This document shows, piece after piece, positions 10,345 through 52,480 of a stretch of DNA of 64,000 bases; the first letter of the stretch is position 1; each line of letters begins with the position of its first letter. Position numbers and translations under genes: made by a program. Source of the stretch: Falsiroseomonas tokyonensis (GTDB lineage Bacteria; Pseudomonadota; Alphaproteobacteria; Acetobacterales; Acetobacteraceae); the NCBI RefSeq assembly GCF_019024325.1, contig NZ_JAFNJS010000001.1:1116001-1180000 (forward strand). The letters run 5' to 3'. A model generated the notes under the pieces. It made no database searches. It saw only the letters and a program-made list of their open reading frames with translations, and was not told the DNA's origin.

Positions 10345-13050
10345 ATGAAGATGAAATTCATCCTACGGTTGGGTTCCTTGCGCGTCGCCTGGTTTCTGCT
10401 CGCCCTGCTGGCGGTCGGCGCGCCCGTCCTCGCGCAGACGCCCTTCTCAGGCCCCGGCTCGGAAGGCGCGACCCTGGCGCCACCCTCCCTGCCCTCCCTG
10501 CTGCCGAACGGCCTGCCGGTGCCGACCCTGCCGCCGGCGGCGCAGCAGGACATCCTGCAGCGGATGCGCGACGCCGCCGCGGGCCGCACCCCGACCCAAG
10601 CTGGGCCCCAAGCTGGGCCCCAGGTCGGGCCGCTGCCCGCCCCCAGCGCTCCCGCCCCGCCACCCGTGGCCGCCAGTGCCCCGTCCGCCCTTGCGGAAAA
10701 CCTGTCCCAGATCGAGGCCTTCTTCGCCGAGAGGCTCGGCCTGCCGCTGCGCCAGTTCGGCTATGACAGCTTCGCTGGCGGCGCCCGCACGCCGCCCGCG
10801 ATCGGCGCGCTGCCCGGCGACTATGTGATCGGCCGCGACGACGAGCTGGTGCTGGCGCTGCGCGGCCGCACCCGCGCCACGCTGAACCTGCGCGTGCAGC
10901 GCGACGGCACCATCCTGACCCCGGACCTGCCGCCCATCCCCGCCGCCGGCCGCACCCTGTCCGAGTTGCGCGCGGACCTCGAGGCGCGCGCGGCGCGCGA
11001 CCTGCCGGGCACCGAAACCTACGTCTCCATCGGCCAGGTGCGGCAGATCTCGGTCTTCGTGGCCGGGGAAGTGCAGCGGCCCGGGATGCAGACCGTCACC
11101 GCGCTGTCCTCCGTGCTCGATGCGCTGATGCAGGCGGGCGGGCCGCGCCGCACCGGCAGCCTGCGCGCCATCCGCGTCGAAGGCCCCGCGGGCCGCCGCA
11201 GCATCGACCTCTACGCCGTCATCACCGGGGAGGGCGGCGAGGCCGACCTGACGCTGCGCGAGGGCGAGCGCATCATCGTGCCGCCGCTCGGCAGCGTGGT
11301 GGCCGTGGCCGGCGAGGTCACGCGGCCCGGCATCTACGAACTGCCCGCCCGCGCCACCAGCGCGCCGCTGGCCACCGTGCTGCGCCTGGCCGGCGACCCG
11401 CTGCGGCCGGCCGGCAACCGCTTCCTGGTGCAGGGCACCGATGCCGGCGGCCGGCGCAGCTTCGCGGAGATCAGCCCGCGCGAGACGGTGCGGCGCGGCG
11501 ACAGCGTGCTGGTGCAGCCCGGCGCCGATGTGGTGGCGAACCAGCTGCGCCTGGCTGGCCACGTCACCGCCCCCGTCACCCGCGCCGCCGGCCGCAACGG
11601 CACCTCCCTGCGCGCCCTGCTGAACGATGCCCGCCTGGTGCGAGCCGACCCCTACCCGCGCATGGCCGTGGTGCTGCGGCTGGACCCGGCGACGCGCGGC
11701 CGCCGCTTCCTCCCCTTCGACCTGTCCCGCAGCCTGCGCGGCGAAATCGACCTTCCCCTGGCCGAGGGCGACGAGGTGATCGTGCTCGGCCAGTCCGACA
11801 TCGCCTGGCTCGCCAGCCCGCCCGTGCAGCGCGCGCTGCGCGGCGAGGCGCCGGCCGAGGACGCCTGCCCGGCCCTGACCCAGCTCGCCATCGCCACCCG
11901 CAGCGCCCCGGCCCGCTTCGCCCATGCCCGCGGCGCCGGCTTCCCCGAGATCGGCACACCCGGCTGCCCGCCCGTCTTCCGCGAGTACCCGCAGCTTCTG
12001 GGCTTCCTGCTCGACACCTCCGTGCTGCTCAGCGGCGAAGTGCGCCAACCGGGGCTCTTCCCGCTGCTCGACGACACCGGGCTCGACCTGCTGCTGGCGG
12101 CCGCCGGCGGCGCCACCGACGGCGCCGACCTCTCCGCCATCGAACTCGCGCGCGAACCCACCGACCAGTCCGGCGCCCACCCGCTGTCCCGCCTGCTGCT
12201 CGATCTCCGCTCCGGCAACTTCCGGGCCGTGCGCCTTTCGCCCCGCGACGTCATCCGCATCCCGCGCGGCTTCTCGGACCGCGAATCCGGGCCCGTGGTG
12301 CTGGCCGGCGAAGCGGTGCGGCCGGGGACCTACGACATCCGGCGCGGCGAACGCCTCTCCGAACTCCTCGCCCGCGCCGGCGGCCTCACCCCGCAAGCCT
12401 ACCCCTACGGCGCCGTCTTCACCCGCGACAGCGTCCGCCGCCGCCAGCAGGAAGGCTTCGCCCGCACCGCACGCGACCTGGAAACCTCCCTGGTGCAAGT
12501 CGCCGCCGGCCAGGCGGTTGCCGGCGGGCGCGCCCAGGGCGTCGACGTCGGCAGCGCCATCACCGCCGGCCGCGAACTCGCCGCCTCCCTCCGCCAGGCC
12601 CAGGCCGCGGGACGCATGGTGGTGGAAGCCGACCCCGTGCAACTCGCCGCCCACCCGGAACGCGACGTCCTTCTGGAACCGGGCGACCTCATCGTCATCC
12701 CGAAACGCCCCAACGAAGTCACCGTCGTCGGCGCCGTCCTCAACCCCGGCAGCCTGCAATTCCAGTCCGGCTGGCGCGCCAGCGACTACACCCGCGCCGC
12801 CGGCGGCCCCCAACGCTTCGCCGACACCGCCCGCGCCTTCGTCGTCCTGCCCAACGGCCAGGCCACCCCCGCCGGCCTCTCCGCCTGGCAAGCCGGCAAT
12901 ACTCCCATCCCCCCCGGCAGCCTGATCGTCATCCCCCAAGACCCCTCCCCCTACGAAACCTGGGGCTTCATCCGCGACCTCACCCAAGTGCTGAGCCAAG
13001 TCACCATCTCCTCCGCCGCCCTCGCCGTGATCGCGCGGGAGCTGCGTTGA
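10345..13050 (+). CDS. Wza-like polysaccharide export protein with multiple SLBB domains
   Basis: 901 residues. A signal peptide (hydrophobic core about 14-28, ending VLAQ) is followed by a low-complexity Pro/Ala/Gln linker with AGPQ repeats. Next comes a polysaccharide-export domain (GDYVIGRDDELVLALRG) and about five SLBB modules, each opening with a xPG turn (QRPGMQ, TRPGIYE, RQPGLF, VRPGTYD, LNPGSLQ). It would form the outer-membrane exit channel. There is no lipobox cysteine, unlike E. coli Wza. Codons in the last ~700 bases are strongly C-ending. Confidence 0.9.
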   Translation: MKMKFILRLGSLRVAWFLLALLAVGAPVLAQTPFSGPGSEGATLAPPSLPSLLPNGLPVPTLPPAAQQDILQRMRDAAAGRTPTQAGPQAGPQVGPLPAPSAPAPPPVAASAPSALAENLSQIEAFFAERLGLPLRQFGYDSFAGGARTPPAIGALPGDYVIGRDDELVLALRGRTRATLNLRVQRDGTILTPDLPPIPAAGRTLSELRADLEARAARDLPGTETYVSIGQVRQISVFVAGEVQRPGMQTVTALSSVLDALMQAGGPRRTGSLRAIRVEGPAGRRSIDLYAVITGEGGEADLTLREGERIIVPPLGSVVAVAGEVTRPGIYELPARATSAPLATVLRLAGDPLRPAGNRFLVQGTDAGGRRSFAEISPRETVRRGDSVLVQPGADVVANQLRLAGHVTAPVTRAAGRNGTSLRALLNDARLVRADPYPRMAVVLRLDPATRGRRFLPFDLSRSLRGEIDLPLAEGDEVIVLGQSDIAWLASPPVQRALRGEAPAEDACPALTQLAIATRSAPARFAHARGAGFPEIGTPGCPPVFREYPQLLGFLLDTSVLLSGEVRQPGLFPLLDDTGLDLLLAAAGGATDGADLSAIELAREPTDQSGAHPLSRLLLDLRSGNFRAVRLSPRDVIRIPRGFSDRESGPVVLAGEAVRPGTYDIRRGERLSELLARAGGLTPQAYPYGAVFTRDSVRRRQQEGFARTARDLETSLVQVAAGQAVAGGRAQGVDVGSAITAGRELAASLRQAQAAGRMVVEADPVQLAAHPERDVLLEPGDLIVIPKRPNEVTVVGAVLNPGSLQFQSGWRASDYTRAAGGPQRFADTARAFVVLPNGQATPAGLSAWQAGNTPIPPGSLIVIPQDPSPYETWGFIRDLTQVLSQVTISSAALAVIARELR

Positions 13051-13054
13051 GGGG

Positions 13055-13304
13055 GAGGGTGGTTGGCGCGGGCGGCCTTGCAGGGGGACGCTGTCCCCCT
13101 GCACCCCCTGCCAAGGGGCAGTGGCCCCTTGGAACCCTTCGAGTCATGTGCGGGAAGGGCGAGGGGCCGGAGCAACCGCATGTTCGGCGGTCCCGCAGGC
13201 CCCTCGCCCTTCCTGCACAAGGTCCCGTGGTCCAGGAGGCCACTGCCTCCTGGTGGGGGGTGCAGGGGGGCAAAGCCCCCTCGCAGACCACCTGCGCCGC
13301 CCTC
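13055..13304. repeat. Composite palindromic element, copy 1
   Basis: About 250 bp with imperfect terminal inverted repeats (GAGGGT... on the left, the reverse complement of ...CCCTC on the right). It contains five hairpins in order. A (13079-13103) has 11-base arms TGCAGGGGGAC. B (13111-13132) has arms CCAAGGGGC. The central stem has 16-base arms 13153-13168 and 13198-13213. D (13232-13253) has arms CCAGGAGGC. E is at 13261-13285. Copy 2 has the same outer hairpins but the B-stem-D core inverted. The left end follows the export gene stop; the right end overlaps the first 15 codons of the YjbH-like gene. Confidence 0.85.
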
Positions 13305-15371
13305 CTCCTCCTCCTCACGCTGTTCCTGCCCGTCGCCGCCGGCGCGCAGGAGGTGCCGGGGACCGGGTCCAGCTTTGGCGGGGTGGGGCTGGTCGAGGTG
13401 CGGAATGCGCGGTTTCGGCCCGATGGGGTGGTGGAGGCGGGGTCGTCGGTGCGGCACCAGCGGCGGTTTCATTTCCTGAATTGGCAGGCTTTGCCGTGGT
13501 TGGAGACGACGTTTCGCCTGGCGGAGCGGTTGGATGGGACGACGGGGGCCGGGATGACGACGGACCGGTCCTTCGATGTGAAGATCCGGCTGGTGGAGGA
13601 GAGTGATTGGCTGCCGGCGGTGGCGGTGGGGCTGCAGGATTTCATCGGGACTGGGTTGTATTCGGCCGAGTATCTGGTGGCGTCGAAGCGGTGGGGGAAT
13701 TGGGATGCGACGCTGGGGGTTGGCTGGGGTCGGATGGGGACGGGGGATGATTTCGGCAATCCGCTGGCGGTGATTTCGCCCCGTTTCGAGGAGCGGCCGC
13801 GGGAGGTGGGGCAGGGCGGGTCGGTGAATACCTTTCCCTTTTTTCGCGGCGATCAGGCGGCCTTGTTCGGCGGGCTGGAATATTCGCTGCCGCCCTTGTG
13901 GACGCCGCTCGGGACTGTGGAGGGGTTGCGGGGGAAGGTGGAGTGGTCCGGGGATGCCTTGCGGGATGAGCGGGGCGGCTGGCCGGCGCGGACCACCGGG
14001 TTGCGGGGGGAGGCGCGGAGCCGGCTGAACTACGGGCTGCACTGGTCGAACGGCTGGTTGGATGCCGGGCTGGACTGGGTGCATGGCACGGATCTGCTGT
14101 TCCGGATCTCGGCGCGGCTGGACCCGGGCCGGGTGCCGGAGCGGGAGCGGTTGCCCGCCTTGGGGGCGCGGCCGGTGGCGGTTGTGGAGCCCGAGGCGGC
14201 GGTGCGGGCGGCGTTGCGCGAGGCGGGCTTTCGCCCGGTGGCGGTGGAGATCCGGGGCGCCGAGGTGCGGATTGCCGTCGCTGGCGGCCGGCAGCGGCGC
14301 CTGGCGGGGGCGGCGGGGCGAGTGTTGCGCGCGGTGCAGCCGCATCTGCCGCGCGAGGTGGAGCGGCTGGTCCTGTCCTGGCGCCAGGCCGGGGTGGAGG
14401 TGGCGCGGCTGGTCCTGCCGCGGCGGGCGATGGAGGCGGCGAGCCGTGGCGATGGCAGTGCGGAGGAGGTGTTCTTCGCCAGCGCGCTGGGGGCTGCGGG
14501 CGCCGATGACTTCGGGCTGATCGATGGCGGCAGCGGCCTCGCCTGGGGGGCGGAGCCGCGGCTTTCGGTGTTGCTGGGCGATCCGTCCCGCACGCTGCGC
14601 TGGCAGGCGGCGGCGGTGGTGGGCGCGCGGTGGGAGGTGGGGCGGGGCTTCGCCATGGCTGGCAGCCTGTCGCGCAGCCTGGCGGGCAATCTCGCGGATG
14701 CGCCGCCTTCCGACAGCCTGCTGCCGCGCGTGCGCAGCGAGGCGGGGCGCTATGCGCGGGAGGGGGAGACGGCGATCCCGGCGCTCTACGGCGAGCGGAT
14801 CTGGAGCCTGGCGCCGGACGTCTTTGCGCGGGCCACGGCGGGCTATCTGGAGCCGATGTTTGCGGGGGTCTCGGCGGAGGTGCTGTGGCGGCCGCATGAC
14901 CGGCCTTACGCGCTGGGTGTCGATATCGCGCAGGTGGCGCAGCGGGACTATGACCAGCGCTTCGGCGTGCTCGGCTATCACGTCACCACGGGCCATGTCT
15001 CGGCCTATGCCGACCTGCCCTGGTACAATCTGCAGGGCGTGGTGCGGGCGGGGCGGTATCTGGCGGGGGATTGGGGGGCGACGGTGGAACTGTCGCGCCG
15101 CTTCGCCAGCGGCATCGAGATCGGTGGCTTCGCGACCATCACCGACGTGCCCTTCAGCCGCTTCGGTGAGGGCAGTTTTGACCGCGGCATCTTCATCCGC
15201 ATTCCGCTCGACCTGCTGGGGACCGAGACGCGCACGGTGGCGCCGGTGGTGGTGCGCGGCGTGACGCGCGATGGCGGCGCGCGGTTGTCGGTCGACAACC
15301 CGCTCTGGGAGGTGACGCGGGAGGGGCGGCAGCGCGCGCTGCAGGATGGCTTCTTCGAGTTCCTGCGCTGA
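13260..15371 (+). CDS. YjbH-like outer-membrane exopolysaccharide protein
   Basis: 703 residues, the usual size for YjbH (PF06082-type) proteins. After the signal peptide the pattern FGGVGLVEVRNARF, RFHFLNWQALPWLETTFRL and GLQDFIGTGLYSAEYLVASKR is characteristic. The C-terminus repeats beta-barrel-like strands. Role: outer-membrane lipoprotein or porin-like part of polysaccharide secretion. GTG 13260 gives MQGGKAPSQTTCAALLLL then AGAQ, a good signal peptide; no ATG fits. The start and n-region come from the palindromic element. The coding strand is markedly G-rich at first, unlike the preceding gene. Confidence 0.82.
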   Translation: MQGGKAPSQTTCAALLLLLTLFLPVAAGAQEVPGTGSSFGGVGLVEVRNARFRPDGVVEAGSSVRHQRRFHFLNWQALPWLETTFRLAERLDGTTGAGMTTDRSFDVKIRLVEESDWLPAVAVGLQDFIGTGLYSAEYLVASKRWGNWDATLGVGWGRMGTGDDFGNPLAVISPRFEERPREVGQGGSVNTFPFFRGDQAALFGGLEYSLPPLWTPLGTVEGLRGKVEWSGDALRDERGGWPARTTGLRGEARSRLNYGLHWSNGWLDAGLDWVHGTDLLFRISARLDPGRVPERERLPALGARPVAVVEPEAAVRAALREAGFRPVAVEIRGAEVRIAVAGGRQRRLAGAAGRVLRAVQPHLPREVERLVLSWRQAGVEVARLVLPRRAMEAASRGDGSAEEVFFASALGAAGADDFGLIDGGSGLAWGAEPRLSVLLGDPSRTLRWQAAAVVGARWEVGRGFAMAGSLSRSLAGNLADAPPSDSLLPRVRSEAGRYAREGETAIPALYGERIWSLAPDVFARATAGYLEPMFAGVSAEVLWRPHDRPYALGVDIAQVAQRDYDQRFGVLGYHVTTGHVSAYADLPWYNLQGVVRAGRYLAGDWGATVELSRRFASGIEIGGFATITDVPFSRFGEGSFDRGIFIRIPLDLLGTETRTVAPVVVRGVTRDGGARLSVDNPLWEVTREGRQRALQDGFFEFLR

Positions 15372-21060: not shown

Positions 21061-23514
21061 ATGCCACAATCCCCCTCGCTGCTCCTGCCGCGCCTGGTCT
21101 CGGCGATCCTGCTGCTGACCGGCCTGGCCCTGGCGGGCGGCGGCGCCTGGCTGGCGCTGCTCGGCGGGTCCTGGTTCTACCTGCTGGCGGGCCTCGCCCT
21201 GCTGGCCAGCGGCGCCCTGCTCTGGCGTGGCCGGGCCGAGGCGCTGGTGGTCTTCGCGCTGCTCCTGCTCGGAACGCTCGGCTGGGCGATCTGGGAGGTC
21301 GGGCTGGACTGGTGGGCGCTGGCGCCGCGCGGCGGCATGCTGGTGGTGCTGGGCCTGGTCCTGCTGACGCCCTGGGTCACCCGCCCGCTCGGCACCCGCG
21401 CGCGGGCCGGCAGCGGCCTGGCGCTGGGCCTGGTGGTGCTGGCCACCGGCGTCACCGCCGGCATCGCCATGCTGCGCGACCCGCATGCGATCGAGGGCAA
21501 CCTGCCGGACCGCCGCATCGCCGCGGCCCCCGATGGGGTGCCGCCTGGCGAGTGGCACGCCTATGGCCGCAGCGGCCTGGGCCAGCGCTTCTCGCCGCTC
21601 GACCAGATCACGCCGCAGAACATCGCCCGGCTGGAGGTCGCCTGGCAGTATCGCACCGGCGATACGCGCGGCCAGCCGGGGGAACCGCAGGAAACGACCT
21701 TCGAGGTCACCCCCCTGAAGATCGACAACCGCCTGTTCCTCTGCACCCCGCACCAGGCGGTGATCGCGCTGGATGCCACCACAGGCGCCGAGATCTGGCG
21801 CTACCGCCCCACCATCCTGAACGACCTGGCGCTGCAGCACCTGACCTGCCGCGGCCTGTCCTGGCTTTCGGCCGCCGAGGCCGCGGCCCCCGCCACGCCG
21901 CCCCGGCCGCTGGACCCCGCGCGCCAGGCCGACGCCCGCGCCGCCGTGCCGAACCTGCCCATCGCCACCGGCGGCGGCACGCCGAGCGTCGATTGCGGCG
22001 CCCGCCTGTTCATGCCGACGGCCGATGGCCGCGTCATCGCGCTGGACCCCGCCACCGGCGCCGTCTGCCGCAACTTCGGCGATGGCACGGGGCAGATCAA
22101 TCTCTGGGCCAACATGCCCAACCCGCGGCCGGGCGGGTACTACTCCACCTCCCCGCCCGTGGTGGCCAATGGCGTGCTCGTCATCGGCGGCACCGTGCTC
22201 GACAACGTCTCCACCACCGAGCAGTCCGGCGTCATCCGCGGCTACGACGCGCGCAGCGGCGCCCTGGTCTGGAACTGGGATTCCGGCGCGCCGGACACGA
22301 CCGCGCCGATCCCGCCGGAGGCGACCTACACCGCCAATTCGCCCAATGCCTGGTCGATCCTCAGCGTCGATGCGACGCTCGGCCTCGTCTACGTCCCGCT
22401 CGGCAACCAGCCACCGGACCAGTTCGGCGGCAACCGCAGCCCGGCGGTGGAGCGCTTCTCCTCCTCCGTCGTGGCACTGGACCTGACGGATGGCAGCCTG
22501 CGCTGGGTCTTCCAGACCGTGCACCACGACCTCTGGGACTACGACGTCCCCTCCCAGCCGACGCTGGTCGACCTGACCATCGGTGGCCAGACGGTGCCGG
22601 CCCTGGTGCAGCCGACCAAGCAGGGCGAGCTCTACGTCCTCGACCGTCGCACCGGCGCGCCCCTGCTGCCGGTGCGCGAGGTGCCCGCCCCGCAGGGCGC
22701 CGCGCCGGGCGACACCACCGCCCCCACCCAGCCCGTCTCCACCCTGTCCTTCGACCCGCCGATGCTGCGCGGGCGGGACATGTGGGGGGCCACGCTGGTC
22801 GACCAACTGGCCTGCCGCATCCAGCTGCGTCGCCTGCGCTACGAGGGCCGCTACACGCCGCCCTCGCTGCAGGGCTCCATCGTCTACCCCGGCAATTTCG
22901 GCGTCTTCAACTGGGGCGGCATCGCCGTGGACCCGGAACGACAGATCGCCTTCACCACGCCAGCCTACCTCGCCTTCGTCTCCCGCCTCATCCCGCGCGA
23001 GAACGCCACGGAGCTCTACGTCCAGGGCGGCAGCCCGCCGCCGGGCGCACTGCCCGCACTGAATGAGAATTTCGGCACACCCTATGCCGTGGAACTCAAG
23101 CCCTTCCTGTCACCCATCGGCCTGCCCTGCCAGCAGCCGCCCTGGGGCTATGTCGCGGGGGCGGACCTGACGGATGGCCGGATCGCCTGGAAGCACCGCA
23201 ACGGCACCGTGCGCGACCTGACGCCCCTGCCGCTGCCCTTCCGCATGGGCGTGCCCGATCTCGGCGGCCCGATCATGACCCGCGGCGGCGTTGCCTTCGC
23301 CTCCGGCACGCTGGACAACTTCGTGCGCGGCTACGACGTGACGACCGGCGCACAGATCTGGGAATCCCGCCTGCCAGCCGGCGGCCAGGCCACCCCCATG
23401 ACCTACACCGGCACCGACAACCGCCAATACCTGCTCGTCATCGCCGGCGGCCACGGCTCCCTCGGCACCACCGCAGGCGACTACGTCATCGCCTATGCGC
23501 TGCCGGGGCGGTGA
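21061..23514 (+). CDS. Membrane-bound PQQ-dependent dehydrogenase (glucose/quinate/shikimate family)
   Basis: 817 residues. Five N-terminal helices (about 8-140) anchor the protein; an eight-bladed quinoprotein propeller follows, starting WHAYGRSGLGQRFSPLDQI. Later blocks include VFQTVHHDLWDYDVPSQP, a hallmark of this family, and FNWGGIAVD. Such enzymes oxidise sugars or cyclic polyols in the periplasm and pass electrons to ubiquinone. Glucose versus quinate or shikimate cannot be decided. GGAGG lies 8 bases before ATG 21061. PQQ synthesis genes are not in the window. Confidence 0.9.
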   Translation: MPQSPSLLLPRLVSAILLLTGLALAGGGAWLALLGGSWFYLLAGLALLASGALLWRGRAEALVVFALLLLGTLGWAIWEVGLDWWALAPRGGMLVVLGLVLLTPWVTRPLGTRARAGSGLALGLVVLATGVTAGIAMLRDPHAIEGNLPDRRIAAAPDGVPPGEWHAYGRSGLGQRFSPLDQITPQNIARLEVAWQYRTGDTRGQPGEPQETTFEVTPLKIDNRLFLCTPHQAVIALDATTGAEIWRYRPTILNDLALQHLTCRGLSWLSAAEAAAPATPPRPLDPARQADARAAVPNLPIATGGGTPSVDCGARLFMPTADGRVIALDPATGAVCRNFGDGTGQINLWANMPNPRPGGYYSTSPPVVANGVLVIGGTVLDNVSTTEQSGVIRGYDARSGALVWNWDSGAPDTTAPIPPEATYTANSPNAWSILSVDATLGLVYVPLGNQPPDQFGGNRSPAVERFSSSVVALDLTDGSLRWVFQTVHHDLWDYDVPSQPTLVDLTIGGQTVPALVQPTKQGELYVLDRRTGAPLLPVREVPAPQGAAPGDTTAPTQPVSTLSFDPPMLRGRDMWGATLVDQLACRIQLRRLRYEGRYTPPSLQGSIVYPGNFGVFNWGGIAVDPERQIAFTTPAYLAFVSRLIPRENATELYVQGGSPPPGALPALNENFGTPYAVELKPFLSPIGLPCQQPPWGYVAGADLTDGRIAWKHRNGTVRDLTPLPLPFRMGVPDLGGPIMTRGGVAFASGTLDNFVRGYDVTTGAQIWESRLPAGGQATPMTYTGTDNRQYLLVIAGGHGSLGTTAGDYVIAYALPGR

Positions 23515-23762
23515 GAGGGTGCGCGGGTGATTGCAGGGGGACGCTGTCCCCCTGCACCCCCTGCCAGGAGGCAGAGGCCTCCTGGACCTCAGGACCTTTG
23601 AGCAGGAATGGAGAGGGGGCCAGCGGTACCGCAGATCATGCGGTCGCTCCGGCCCCCTCTCCATTCCTGCTCATGATTCAAGGGTTCCAAGGGGCCACTG
23701 CCCCTTGGCGGGAGGGTGCAGGGAGGGCGGAGCCCTCCTTGCAAACCACCCGCGGCACCCTC
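23515..23762. repeat. Composite palindromic element, copy 2
   Basis: 248 bp between two convergent stop codons, touching both. Terminal inverted repeats begin GAGGGTG on the left and, reversed, TGAGGGTG on the right. Hairpin A (23532-23556) is identical to copy 1 over 25 bases. Next are arms CCAGGAGGC (23564-23585), a central stem with perfect 22-base arms (23600-23621 and 23651-23672), arms CCAAGGGGC (23687-23708) and a last hairpin (23722-23738). The order of the second and fourth hairpins, with their linkers, is reversed relative to copy 1. It may act as a two-way terminator. Confidence 0.87.
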
Positions 23763-25257
23763 ACGCCATCCGGCGCAGCCAGGCGGCGTAGAGGCGGGGG
23801 CCGGCGAGGGCGGCGATGGCGATGAGCAGGATGACCAGGCTGATGGGGCGGGTGACGAAGACGGTCCAGTCGCCTTGGCTGATGGTGAGCGCCTGGCGCA
23901 TGGCTTGTTCGGCCATCGGGCCCAGGATCATGCCGATGACCACGGGCGCCACCGGGAAGTCGAAGCGGCGCATGAACATGGCGATGATGCCGATGCCGTA
24001 GAGCAGCACGAGGTCGATGACGGAGTTGCTGATGCCGTAGGTGCCGATCGTCGCGAAGACGAGGATGCCGGCGTAGAGCTGGGGTTGTGGGATTTTCAGG
24101 ATGCGCGCCCAGAGGCCGACGAGGGGCAGGTTCAGCACCACCAGCATGACGTTGGCGATGAACAGGCTGGCGATCAGGGTCCAGACCAGGTCGGCCTGGG
24201 TGGTGAAGAGCAGGGGGCCGGGCTGGATGCCGTAGGATTGGAAGGCGGAGAGCATGATGGCGGCGGTGGCGCTGGTCGGCAGGCCGAGGGTGAGCATCGG
24301 CACCAGCACGCCGGCGGCGGCGGCGTTGTTGGCGGCTTCCGGGCCGGCCACGCCTTCGATGGCGCCGGTGGTGCCGAATTCCTTTTCATGTTCCGGGCGC
24401 ACCAGCTTCCGTTCCATGAAGTAGCTCAGCATGGTCGGCATTTCGGTGCCGCCGGCGGGCATGACGCCGAAGGGAAAGCCCAGGCCGGCGCCGCGGATCC
24501 AGGGCCAGAAGGAGCGTTTCCAGTCGGACTTGCTCATCATGATGCTGCCGACGTGGCGCACTTCGACGGGGCCTTCGACGTAGCGCCAGGCGAGGTAGAG
24601 GGTCTCGCCCACGGCAAAGAGGGCGACGGCGACGAGGACGACGTTCACCCCGTCCAGCAGTTCGGGCACGCCGAAGGTCAGGCGCGGCTGGCCGGTCTGC
24701 AGGTCGACGCCGACGAGGCCGAGCAGTAGGCCGAAGCCGAGGCTGGTGAGGCCGCGCAGCGCGGAGCCGCCGAGCACGGCGGAGACGGTGACGAAGCAGA
24801 GCACCATCAGCATGAAGTACTCGGCCGGACCGAGCTTCAGCGCGAGCTCGACGACGATGGGCCCGAGGAAGGCGATGCCGATGGTGCCCACCGTGCCGGC
24901 CACGAAGCTGCCGATGGCGGAGGTGGCCAGCGCCGGGCCGGCGCGCCCGTTCCGCGCCATCTTCGCCCCTTCGAGCGCGGTGATGATGGAGCCCGACTCA
25001 CCCGGCGTGTTCAGCAGGATGGAGGTGGTGGAGCCGCCATACATCGCGCCGTAGAAGATGCCGCAGAACAGGATGAAGGCGCCGGTGGCGGAGACGCTGA
25101 AGGTGATCGGCAGCAGCAGCGCGATGGTCAGCGCCGGGCCGATGCCGGGCAGCACGCCGATGGCGGTGCCGAGGAAGCAGCCGAGCAGCGCCCAGCCGAG
25201 GTTGGACAGCGACAGCGCATGGCTGAAGCCGAGTGTCAGGCCCTCGATCGCACCCAT
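23761..25257 (-). CDS. tctA: Tripartite tricarboxylate transporter, large permease TctA
   Basis: 498 residues with about twelve helices. The family signatures [17 protein letters not shown] near residue 40 and [15 protein letters not shown] near residue 80 are intact, as is [13 protein letters not shown] in the second half. With TctB and the receptor TctC it moves carboxylates across the inner membrane by ion gradient. TctA shares one base with the tctB stop (TGATG). Its own stop codon lies at the end of the palindromic element. Confidence 0.95.
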
Positions 25258-42706: not shown

Positions 42707-43584
42707 TGCGCGCCGAGGCGGCTGCAGCACCGCTCCGGCCCGGCGCCGGCATGGGGGAAGACGAGGATGACGCATCTGGCGATCCGCCGGAGATGAGCGG
42801 CCCGCCCGTGAATTCCGTGCTGCGCGCCCTCGCCCTGCTGAAGGAGCTGAACCGGCAGCGCCACACCACGGTGGACCAGCTGCACCGCGCCACCGGCCTT
42901 CCCAAGCCCACCATCATGCGGCTGCTGAATACGCTGATCACCTCCGGCCTGGTGGTGAAGGGGGAGCGGGGGCTGGGCTATCGCATCACCTCCCAGGTCG
43001 CGGCGCTGAGCTCCGGCTTCCATGGCGGGCCGCTGGTGGCGGAGGCGGGGCGCGCCTGGGCGGCGGACCTGACGCGGCGGCTGAAATGGCCGGCGGCCAT
43101 CGCGGTGCCGGACCAGGGGCGCGTTGTGGTCGCCGTCAGCACCATGGCGGACAGCGCCGTCTCGCCCTTCCACGCGACGGTCGGCGTGCGCTTCAGCATG
43201 GTGACGCGCGCGATCGGCCGCGCCTACCTCGCCTTCTGCCCAGAGGATGAGCAGCGCATCCTGCTCAGCCTGCTCGCCGCCAGCCCGGATCCGGAGGACA
43301 ATCCGCCGAACCTGGAACGCGTGGTGCAGCGGATGATCGCGATGGTGCGGCGGGAAGGCTATGCGCAGCGCGACCCCAAGGTGGAGCCGCGCAATTCCAA
43401 TACGGTCGCGGTGCCGATCATGCAGGGCGAGTCCGTCGCCGGCACGCTTGGCCTCAGCTATTTCCGCTCTGTCGTCAGCCATGCCGCATTGACCGGGGAA
43501 CTGGTGCCGGCACTGCAGGAGGCGAGCCGGCAGATCACCGCCTCCATGGAACGCCTGCAGCAGGGCCTGGCGCGGGCCGGGTAG
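42706..43584 (+). CDS. IclR-family transcriptional regulator (first of two paralogues)
   Basis: 292 residues. The winged helix lies at about 35-90 (TTVDQLHRATGLPKPTIMRLLNTL) and an effector-binding domain with FHATVGVRFSMVTRAIGRAYLAF and EPRNSNTVAVPI follows. It is closely similar to the protein at 51689, including almost the same recognition helix. ATG 42706 has AGGAGG upstream, but gives a 29-residue Asp/Glu-rich leader; ATG 42793 matches the paralogue's start. Divergent from the Bug operon with two boxes between. Confidence 0.9.
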   Translation: MRAEAAAAPLRPGAGMGEDEDDASGDPPEMSGPPVNSVLRALALLKELNRQRHTTVDQLHRATGLPKPTIMRLLNTLITSGLVVKGERGLGYRITSQVAALSSGFHGGPLVAEAGRAWAADLTRRLKWPAAIAVPDQGRVVVAVSTMADSAVSPFHATVGVRFSMVTRAIGRAYLAFCPEDEQRILLSLLAASPDPEDNPPNLERVVQRMIAMVRREGYAQRDPKVEPRNSNTVAVPIMQGESVAGTLGLSYFRSVVSHAALTGELVPALQEASRQITASMERLQQGLARAG

Positions 43585-51688: not shown

Positions 51689-52480
51689 TCAGGGCGGCGC
51701 CGGCGCCTGGCCCTGCAGGCGGTCCATGGCGGCGGTGATCTCGCGGCTGGCCTGCTGAAGCGCCGGCACCAGCTCCTCCACCAGCATGCGGTGGCTGACG
51801 GCGGAGCGGAAGAAGCTGAGACCGATGGTGCCGGCCACCGATGCGCCCTGCAGGATCGGCACCGCGACGGTGTTGGAGGAGCGCGGCTCCACCTTCGGGT
51901 CGCGCAGCGCGTAGCCCTGGCGCCGCACCGTCGCGACGATGGCGCGCACCACGCGGTCCAGCTTCGGCGGATTGTCCTCGTGGTTGGGTGAGGCCGCGAG
52001 CAGGCGCAGCAGGATGCGGCGCTCCGCCTCCGGGCAGCAGGCGAGATAGGCGCGGCCGAGGGCGCGCGTCACCAGGCTGTGGCGCACGCCGACGGTCGCG
52101 TGGAAGGGCGAGACGGTGCTGCTGGCCGCGGTGCTGGCCGCGATCAGGATGCGCCCGCCATCCGGCACCGCGATGGCCGCCGGCCAGCGCAGCCGGCGCG
52201 TGAGGTCCGCCGCCCAGGGCCGCCCGGCCTCCGCCACCAATGGCCCGCCATGGAAGCCGGCGCTGAGCGTCTGCACATCCGAGGTGACGCGATAGCCGAT
52301 GCCACGCTCCCCCTTCGCCACCAGCCCAGCGGCGGCCAGCGTGCCGAGCAGCCGCATCACCGTCGGCTTCGGCAGCGCGGTGACGCGGTGCAGCTGGTCC
52401 ACGGTCGTGGTCTGCTGCCTGTTCAGCTCCCGCAGGATGGACAGGGCGCGCAGCACGGATTGGACCGGCGGTTCGTTCAG
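51689..52480 (-). CDS. IclR-family transcriptional regulator (second paralogue, probable CTG start)
   Basis: 263 residues from CTG 52480. The HTH (TTVDQLHRVTALPKPTVMRLLGTL) and effector domain (FHATVGVRHSLVTRALGRAYLAC, EPRSSNTVAVPI) parallel the 42706 protein closely. From CTG 52480 it reads (M)NEPPVQSVLRALSIL, aligning exactly with MSGPPVNSVLRALALL of the paralogue, and overlaps the oxidoreductase stop as CTGA with GGAG just upstream. The nearest conventional start, GTG 52456, would cut eight aligned residues. Confidence 0.88.
   Translation of the reverse strand: MNEPPVQSVLRALSILRELNRQQTTTVDQLHRVTALPKPTVMRLLGTLAAAGLVAKGERGIGYRVTSDVQTLSAGFHGGPLVAEAGRPWAADLTRRLRWPAAIAVPDGGRILIAASTAASSTVSPFHATVGVRHSLVTRALGRAYLACCPEAERRILLRLLAASPNHEDNPPKLDRVVRAIVATVRRQGYALRDPKVEPRSSNTVAVPILQGASVAGTIGLSFFRSAVSHRMLVEELVPALQQASREITAAMDRLQGQAPAPP

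What the first reader, a model, noticed from the sequence alone, without database searches (positions are those of the whole stretch)
13055..13304. Two ~250-bp composite palindromic elements whose core is inverted relative to the ends
Copies at 13055-13304 and 23515-23762 have the same outer parts in the same orientation, including an identical 25-base first hairpin and terminal repeats beginning (T)GAGGGTG. The inner part, hairpin CCAAGGGGC, linker, long stem, linker, hairpin CCAGGAGGC, runs forward in one and reverse in the other. The linkers confirm this: AACCCTTCGAGTCATG in copy 1 matches AACCCTTGAATCATG read from the other strand of copy 2. The outer parts are themselves inverted repeats, so recombination or folding-driven inversion of the core is possible. 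This could be a REP/BIME-like mobile family or an invertible structured terminator; I cannot tie it to a named family.
Basis: partly seen in the sequence, partly recalled or inferred. Interest (0 to 1): 0.82.

Follow-up and report, generated by a model that had tools for sequence, protein, structure and literature searches.

The report
Nested palindromes that keep flipping
A family of roughly 250-base, multi-hairpin DNA elements sits at the ends of genes in Falsiroseomonas and relatives, and at the same gene in related species its inner parts are found turned round while the hairpins stay almost perfectly paired, a natural record of how DNA palindromes may flip and repair themselves.

Summary
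The two window copies (13048-13312, 23512-23763) belong to a family of at least 33 copies in this genome, present in all 15 genus genomes searched. A full copy is A hairpin, B hairpin, central stem-loop, B hairpin, A hairpin. 32 of 33 copies abut a stop codon; 5 of 198 shifted controls do. At 25 orthologous loci with collinear flanks, orientation differs between species for A hairpins at 15 of 25, core at 13 of 23 and central loop at 8 of 18 scored. One 117-nt core is identical but inverted at the same locus in two species; at three loci the core flipped while the A hairpins stayed. Stems are 2261 of 2280 Watson-Crick, 3 G-T, with 76 distinct arms; in the close clade they diverge about twice as much as flanks, nearly always on both arms. 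Best reading: REP/BIME-like gene-end palindromes evolving largely by replication template switching, with copying among copies as a second process. The enzyme, flipping within a strain, and any terminator function are untested.

The parts
13048..13312 (.). Element copy 1 (whole), starting at the stop codon (13048-13050) of the polysaccharide-export-type gene 10345-13050 and upstream of a co-directional gene
   Evidence: element after the orthologous gene in other genus genomes
13079..13103 (.). A hairpin, left (type GGGGGAC), followed by a C-run at 13104-13110
13111..13132 (.). B1 hairpin CCAAGGGGC-AGTG-GCCCCTTGG; linker AACCCTTCGAGTCA follows
13147..13168 (.). Central stem, 5' (purine-rich) arm
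13169..13197 (.). Central loop (29 nt)
13198..13219 (.). Central stem, 3' arm (one G-T mismatch in 22 pairs)
13232..13253 (.). B2 hairpin CCAGGAGGC-CACT-GCCTCCTGG
13263..13285 (.). A hairpin, right (type GGGGGC; perfectly paired part 13266-13280)
23512..23763 (.). Element copy 2 (whole), between convergent genes 21061-23514 (+) and 23761-25257 (-); its ends overlap both stop codons
23532..23556 (.). A hairpin, left (type GGGGGAC, identical to copy 1)
23564..23585 (.). B2 hairpin (on the left here)
23599..23621 (.). Central stem, 5' arm (23 pairs, no mismatch)
23622..23650 (.). Central loop (29 nt)
23651..23673 (.). Central stem, 3' arm
23687..23708 (.). B1 hairpin (on the right here); linker TGATTCAAGGGTT (23674-23686) precedes it
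23717..23743 (.). A hairpin, right (type GGGAGGGC)

Best explanation
This is a dispersed family of gene-end elements, retained at the same loci between species: two A-B twin-hairpin units in inverted order around a central stem-loop. SHOWN: the architecture; placement at stop codons; retention at orthologous loci; near-perfect stems with both-arm covariation; differences in orientation, between related species at the same locus, of the loop, of the core (B-stem-B) and of the whole element. INFERRED: the motor is DNA polymerase strand (template) switching at the hairpins during replication. Copying one arm from the other makes both arms match in one event, which gives stems that change fast yet stay Watson-Crick. 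When the switch spans the spacer, it inverts loop, core or whole element. Copying among the dispersed copies is a second, homogenising process. The likely reason for retention is a strong structure at mRNA 3' ends (termination, 3'-end protection or insulation of convergent genes).
For: Orientation differences at orthologous loci: A 15 of 25, core 13 of 23, loop 8 of 18 scored groups, each judged against one reference copy (counting any pair within the 25 groups gives 15, 14 and 11). L148/L168/L189/L208 show all four core-by-loop combinations in four species with 89-91% identical flanks. L170 against L194: 117 nt identical after inversion, flanks 90% (their A hairpins are inverted too). In situ rather than imported: L152/L191 similarity 0.74 against at most 0.39 for other sampled copies; L173/L191 0.66 against 0.40; L157/L179 0.61 against 0.46; more weakly L154/L181 0.58 against 0.50. 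Stems: 2261 of 2280 Watson-Crick, 3 G-T, 7 A-C, 9 other; between-element control 59% Watson-Crick. In the close clade 179 of 188 differing stem pairs changed on both arms; stem-pair divergence 18.5% against 9.4% for flanks. No G-T excess and fast double changes fit one-step arm copying better than two-step compensation. Template switching is described as causing arm homogenisation and spacer inversion (PMC8604942, passages) and as creating and maintaining stems, with loop inversions (PMC8794818, passages). Left and right halves share at most 15 nt, short for ordinary homologous recombination (established knowledge).
Against: Inverted spacers here include cores of 113-163 nt and whole elements of about 200 nt or more, longer than the template-switch examples I saw (yeast spacers with 2-5 substitutions; rRNA loops of about 4-8 nt). 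A chloroplast paper attributes 5-50 bp hairpin inversions, and some much larger ones, to recombination at short inverted repeats (passages). The short segments flanking the core do not match left to right better than chance (4.83 against 5.21), which one might not expect if they served as switch arms. In 13 of 29 core-inverted pairs the orthologue is not the best hit in the other genome, and in 17 of 29 it is not closer than the best paralogue; in G000 against G001 orthologous cores are often less alike than paralogues (L001/L093 0.58 against 0.87). Among nearest-neighbour stems 25 of 165 differing pairs are one-sided. The stem finder favours well-paired, purine-armed stems: 38 of 157 loci gave none, including four with degraded stems in G007 and at least one good stem without the required AGGGG word (L200). 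Flanks include coding sequence under selection, so the flank rate is not a neutral rate. No reads, no mutant, no expression data.
Confidence: 0.55

Rival explanations
1. Ectopic gene conversion or copying between dispersed family members. A copy elsewhere, aligned through a shared palindromic A or B hairpin, overwrites the local core; because the anchor is a palindrome, the import can land in either orientation. No in-situ inversion is needed.
For: In G000 against G001 paralogous cores are often closer than orthologues; in 17 of 29 core-inverted pairs the orthologue is not closer than the best paralogue. One core subfamily (arm AACGACGAAGGGGGAGGGGGC) occurs at several loci. The window's two copies share an identical 36-nt A hairpin region.
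Against: Some inverted orthologues are clearly closer to each other than to any other sampled copy (L152/L191, L173/L191, L157/L179). In 124 of 154 directed orthologue comparisons with a different arm, the inner 12 nt of that arm were not found at another sampled locus of the same genome (sampling is incomplete). It does not explain how new perfectly paired stems arise.
Confidence: 0.22
2. Enzyme-driven mobility or inversion: a transposase or site-specific recombinase recognises the hairpins, and the core is a REPIN-like unit excised and reinserted, or inverted, between the A hairpins.
For: Nested modular forms exist: half-units A-B, A-B-B-A without central stem, full five-hairpin forms, and small palindromes inserted in or beside hairpins. 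Inverted A-B dimers resemble REP dimers, some of which lie within palindromes (PMC3733652, passages). In the L155 group the flipped block ends, by eye, at the outer ends of the B hairpins.
Against: The Y1/RAYT family PF01797 is absent from 15 of 15 genus genomes. There is no conserved crossover word: the segments between A and B vary (ACCCCCTG, ACCCTCCCG, ACCCCCCA, GCTCCCC). No clean empty-core orthologue was seen; three G007 losses leave remnants. Other recombinase families were not searched.
Confidence: 0.15
3. Selection on an RNA structure alone: ordinary two-step compensatory mutations maintain a transcribed multi-hairpin terminator, and inversions are neutral because both strands fold alike.
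For: 32 of 33 copies at gene ends; strong folds.
Against: Only 3 G-T pairs in 2280, although G-U is the usual intermediate; stem divergence exceeds flank divergence with 179 of 188 differing pairs changed on both arms. It gives no mechanism for inversion. No Rfam family reaches its gathering score and no U-run terminator was found.
Confidence: 0.05
4. Assembly artefact: assemblers join palindromic stretches in the wrong orientation.
For: Contigs of G002 end inside elements, so these repeats do disturb assembly.
Against: Left and right halves share at most 15 nt, shorter than usual assembly words, and elements are about 250 bp with unique flanks. Linkers, B hairpins and loops flip as consistent nested blocks across genomes of 30-90 contigs (G003, G005, G012, G013).
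Confidence: 0.03

Closest known systems
REP/BIME and REPIN families (GTAG- and CGTC-tagged repeats, PMC3733652, passages)
   Same: Short hairpins, often as inverted dimers, near 3' ends and between convergent genes; some inserted within larger palindromes
   Different: No GTAG or CGTC tag (1 and 3 of 451 hairpins); no Y1 transposase in the genus; five-hairpin architecture; nested inversions. The paper says CGTC repeats are missing in Acetobacteraceae
RIME / ABC mosaic intergenic elements of rhizobia (recalled; the term only as a search hit)
   Same: Alphaproteobacterial, modular, palindromic, intergenic
   Different: No sequence comparison was made here; I recall no inversion of modules for them
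Quasipalindrome correction and spacer inversion by template switching (PMC8604942, PMC8794818, passages)
   Same: Both hallmarks: arms made identical and spacer inverted
   Different: In the passages read, inverted yeast spacers carry 2-5 substitutions and rRNA loops are about 4-8 nt; here nested spacers reach 113-163 nt (core) and more, at many loci of one family
Small hairpin inversions of chloroplast genomes (PMC12928735, passages, citing Kim and Lee 2005)
   Same: 5-50 bp inversions bounded by 11-24 bp inverted repeats forming stem-loops; larger ones at short repeats are mentioned too
   Different: Organellar, ascribed there to recombination, not a dispersed mosaic family
Site-specific invertible DNA (PMC5903667, search listing and abstract start only)
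   Same: Inverting segment between inverted repeats
   Different: No conserved inverted-repeat site seen; recombinase genes other than Y1 were not searched

Membership tests
REP (GTAG/CGTC) / REPIN | GTAG or CGTC tetranucleotide at one end of the hairpin | tested here: not met
   GTAG within 6 nt of 1, CGTC of 3, of 451 hairpins
REP (GTAG/CGTC) / REPIN | associated RAYT (Y1_Tnp) transposase in the genome (GTAG type) | tested here: not met
   PF01797: 0 of 15 genus genomes; control found it in 5 of 14 named genomes
REP/BIME-like (broad sense) | extragenic palindromes next to gene 3' ends, dispersed in many copies | tested here: met
   at least 33 copies; 32 of 33 abut a stop codon, 5 of 198 controls
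MITE | terminal inverted repeats and target-site duplication | tested here: inconclusive
   imperfect outer inverted repeats seen; one element-free orthologous site (G011), too diverged to define a duplication
Template-switch evolved inverted repeat | arm homogenisation with few one-arm intermediates | tested here: met
   179 of 188 differing pairs changed on both arms in the close clade; nearest neighbours 139 both-arm Watson-Crick, 25 one-sided, 1 other
Template-switch evolved inverted repeat | spacer inversion between otherwise unchanged surroundings | tested here: met
   7 orthologous pairs (5 loci) with A and core in the same orientation and only the loop inverted
Template-switch evolved inverted repeat | occurs during replication, independent of a recombinase | not testable with these tools
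   needs strains and reads
Intrinsic terminator | GC stem followed by a U run | tested here: not met
   0 sites at both copies
Rfam RNA family | gathering-score match | tested here: not met
   0 in the window; sub-threshold hits are mostly microRNA hairpins, chance-like

The most novel reading that the evidence does not exclude
A new class of self-inverting nested palindromic element: a mosaic hairpin family whose dominant mode of evolution is replication strand switching at three nested levels (loop, core, whole). Each copy is a repeatedly flipped, continually re-perfected structure, while its left and right halves are kept dissimilar so that only local hairpins form (A words alike in 8 of 110 elements against 23.2 expected, B words in 0 against 21.3).
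Probability: 0.4. Interest if true: 0.85.

Novelty: new variant of a known kind. Interest (0 to 1): 0.72.

Why it matters
Template switching at palindromes is usually inferred from isolated small mutation clusters. Here one family gives many loci in related species where stem perfection, loop inversion, core inversion and whole-element inversion can be counted together, and where strongly covarying stems carry almost no G-U intermediates. That makes it directly testable how bacterial palindromes flip and how covariation can arise by mutation rather than selection, and it warns that covariation alone need not prove selected RNA structure.

Tried and rejected
Named RNA family: Rfam, 0 at gathering score; the weak, mostly microRNA matches are long-hairpin chance and were dropped. 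RAYT mobilisation: PF01797 absent. Plasmid relatives: no blastn match to copy 1 in PLSDB. Intrinsic terminator: no U run. Flipping by homologous recombination of the ends: halves share at most 15 nt. A conserved stem between the segments that link A and B, suggested by the folds: each segment resembles its own A hairpin slightly more than a random one (5.95 against 5.02) and the opposite segment no more than chance (4.83 against 5.21), so I dropped it.

Rows dropped before counts: of 114 candidate pairs, 25 with flanks on one side only or under 75% identity were left out (89 kept). Of 157 loci, 38 gave no central stem; of the 119 left, 5 (L020, L141, L204, L211, L222) failed hairpin parsing. 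I printed 31 of the 38: most are half-units, four-hairpin forms or fragments; L139, L140, L144, L145 look degraded and L142, L146 deleted (with L095). L114's element lay outside the searched span and L200 lacks the AGGGG word that the finder demanded, so both were missed. The purine-rich 5' arm of the central stem is therefore partly by construction. Left-right dissimilarity of B hairpins may simply be inherited. One search counts each palindrome on both strands.

Literature searches; their lists are capped and hold only an open-licence library; no listed title or abstract start described this family. Papers seen: passages of PMC8794818, PMC3733652, PMC12928735, PMC8604942; outline and abstract of PMC6060812; search listing of PMC5903667. 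RIME/ABC elements are recalled.

Full report
OBSERVATION. The hairpins CCAAGGGGC-N4-GCCCCTTGG and CCAGGAGGC-N4-GCCTCCTGG each occur twice in the window, 0 expected in 100 shuffles, in swapped order in the two copies. Both copies fold with z-scores of -10.98 and -15.13. The left A hairpin region is identical over 36 nt, but the right A hairpins differ. So, for these two paralogues alone, 'core flipped' and 'whole element flipped with other A hairpins' cannot be told apart.

FAMILY. In the window's own genome (G000, 6.16 Mb) a search with copy 1 gives 61 matches that I collapsed by hand to 33 places; only 40 of 94 first-look candidates were scored, so 33 is a lower bound. In the wider search 16 of 39 genomes match at 1e-10: all 15 of the genus (own genome included), 1 of 8 in other genera of the family, and 0 of 16 further away. 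By eye, elements of the same architecture occur in Rubritepida flocculans and a Roseococcus MAG, apparently after the same gene.

ANATOMY. Parsing 119 stem-bearing loci shows a fixed plan with variable letters: a central stem mostly of about 20-24 pairs, a B hairpin mostly 9-20 nt outside each end, an A hairpin usually about 39-50 nt outside. The finder demanded a purine run with AGGGG in the 5' arm of the central stem, so that feature is partly by construction. Core length (B to B) is 113-163 nt in 114 elements. Simpler forms exist: single A-B units, and A-B-B-A without central stem. Small palindromes such as TCGGACGCATGCGTCCGA sit in or beside hairpins in a few copies.

POSITION. A codon-usage test puts a stop codon 100-190 nt from the element centre on at least one side in 32 of 33 G000 copies and on both sides in 15; shifted centres in the same loci give 5 and 0 of 198. 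None was scored divergent, but 17 of 33 had an undetermined side. At locus 1, by eye, the element follows the orthologous gene in 11 of 15 genus genomes (cut by a contig end in G002), has lost its core in G007, and is not seen in G004, G010 and G011; in G011 the stop codon is followed almost directly by an ATG.

INVERSION AT ORTHOLOGOUS LOCI. I fetched further loci from six genus genomes and compared copies with collinear flanks on both sides at 75% identity or more (89 pairs, 73 loci, 25 groups). Judged against one reference copy per group, orientation relative to the flanks differs for A hairpins in 15 of 25, core in 13 of 23 and loop in 8 of 18 scored groups; counting any pair within a group gives 15, 14 and 11 of 25. 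In the close clade (G003, G005, G012, G013; 55 pairs), A hairpins are inverted in 16, cores in 19 and loops in 15, with 4, 2 and 16 undecided. At one locus four species show all four core-by-loop combinations (L148, L168, L189, L208). In five pairs at three loci the core is inverted while the A hairpins keep their orientation; in three pairs the reverse holds; in seven pairs at five loci only the loop is inverted. The clearest case is L170 against L194: 117 nt identical after inversion of the whole element, with flanks 90% identical.

IN SITU OR IMPORTED. For core-inverted pairs the orthologue is the best hit in the other genome in 16 of 29 and closer than the best paralogue in 12 of 29; for same-orientation pairs 34 and 31 of 44; for 16 undecided pairs 0 and 0. 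L152/L191, L173/L191 and L157/L179 are clearly closer to each other than to any other sampled copy, L154/L181 modestly; these argue for in-situ inversion. In G000 against G001 paralogues are often closer than orthologues, so homogenisation among copies also acts.

STEMS. Over the outer 20 pairs of 114 central stems, 2261 of 2280 are Watson-Crick, 3 G-T, 7 A-C and 9 other, with 76 distinct arms; arms paired between elements of the same genome give 59% Watson-Crick and 11% G-T. B hairpins: 2084 of 2091 Watson-Crick; A hairpins: 2211 of 2265, with 17 G-T and 27 A-C (both found by a program that seeks pairing). Between nearest-neighbour stems 139 differing pairs are Watson-Crick to Watson-Crick on both arms, 25 one-sided, 1 other; at 42 orthologous comparisons with at most 6 differing pairs the counts are 82 both-arm Watson-Crick, 7 one-sided and 3 other. 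In the close clade (53 pairs) stems differ at 18.5% of pairs against 9.4% for flanks, and 179 of 188 differing pairs changed on both arms. Two-step compensation under strong selection should be slow and should leave G-U intermediates, so a one-step copying process is more likely (inference; flanks include coding sequence, and some cores may be imported whole).

LEFT AND RIGHT KEPT DIFFERENT. In 110 elements the inner 6-nt A word is the same on both sides in 8 (23.2 expected) and the B word in 0 (21.3 expected), 0 of 5000 shuffles as low. The longest word shared by left half and reverse-complemented right half is 15 nt, while 18% of random pairings reach 20. Long perfect palindromes are unstable in bacteria (established knowledge), which may explain the avoidance; inherited B1/B2 asymmetry may explain part of it.

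MECHANISM. Template switching is described as homogenising arms and inverting spacers (PMC8604942) and as creating and maintaining hairpins with loop inversions (PMC8794818). Both hallmarks are met here, at longer spacers than in those passages. A chloroplast paper ascribes 5-50 bp and some far larger inversions at short inverted repeats to recombination, so recombination at short repeats cannot be excluded. Copying among copies is the main rival and probably co-acts; a dedicated recombinase is possible but has no candidate. Function at gene ends (termination, 3'-end protection or insulation) is inferred from position only.

CLASSIFICATION. It works like a REP/BIME-type gene-end palindrome but is not a tagged REP: tags absent, RAYT absent. 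A paper says CGTC repeats are missing in Acetobacteraceae. No Rfam match at gathering score, no PLSDB match, and no listed paper in eight searches of the open library described it. I rate it a new variant of a known kind.

Noticed in passing
L020, L022 (G000), L123 (G001): An 18-nt perfect palindrome TCGGAC(G/A)CATG(C/T)GTCCGA lies within or beside hairpins of three elements; exact matches at 3 sites in G000 and 2 in G001, two of the five outside the elements I fetched.
   Followed up: partly
L004 (G000), L131 (G001): Another small palindrome with arm GTCGCGGC and loop AGT sits between the A and B hairpins.
   Followed up: no
L006 (G000): By eye, the inverted repeat continues well beyond the outer stem into the flanks, longer than in other copies.
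   Followed up: no
13047-15371: An open frame runs through the whole of copy 1 into the downstream gene; the real start, perhaps near the right A hairpin, is uncertain and the sequence there differs among species.
   Followed up: partly
G002 contigs C32, C51, C158: Contigs of this MAG end in or at elements, so the family breaks assemblies.
   Followed up: no
42794-43481 and 51792-52479: Inverted repeat with 688-nt arms, 80% complementary, in a region with several similar direct repeats (41-50 kb), probably paralogous genes.
   Followed up: no
L078: A contig titled Frigidibacter MAG carries the motif; its isolate label comes from the same series as a Falsiroseomonas MAG, so mis-binning is possible.
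   Followed up: no
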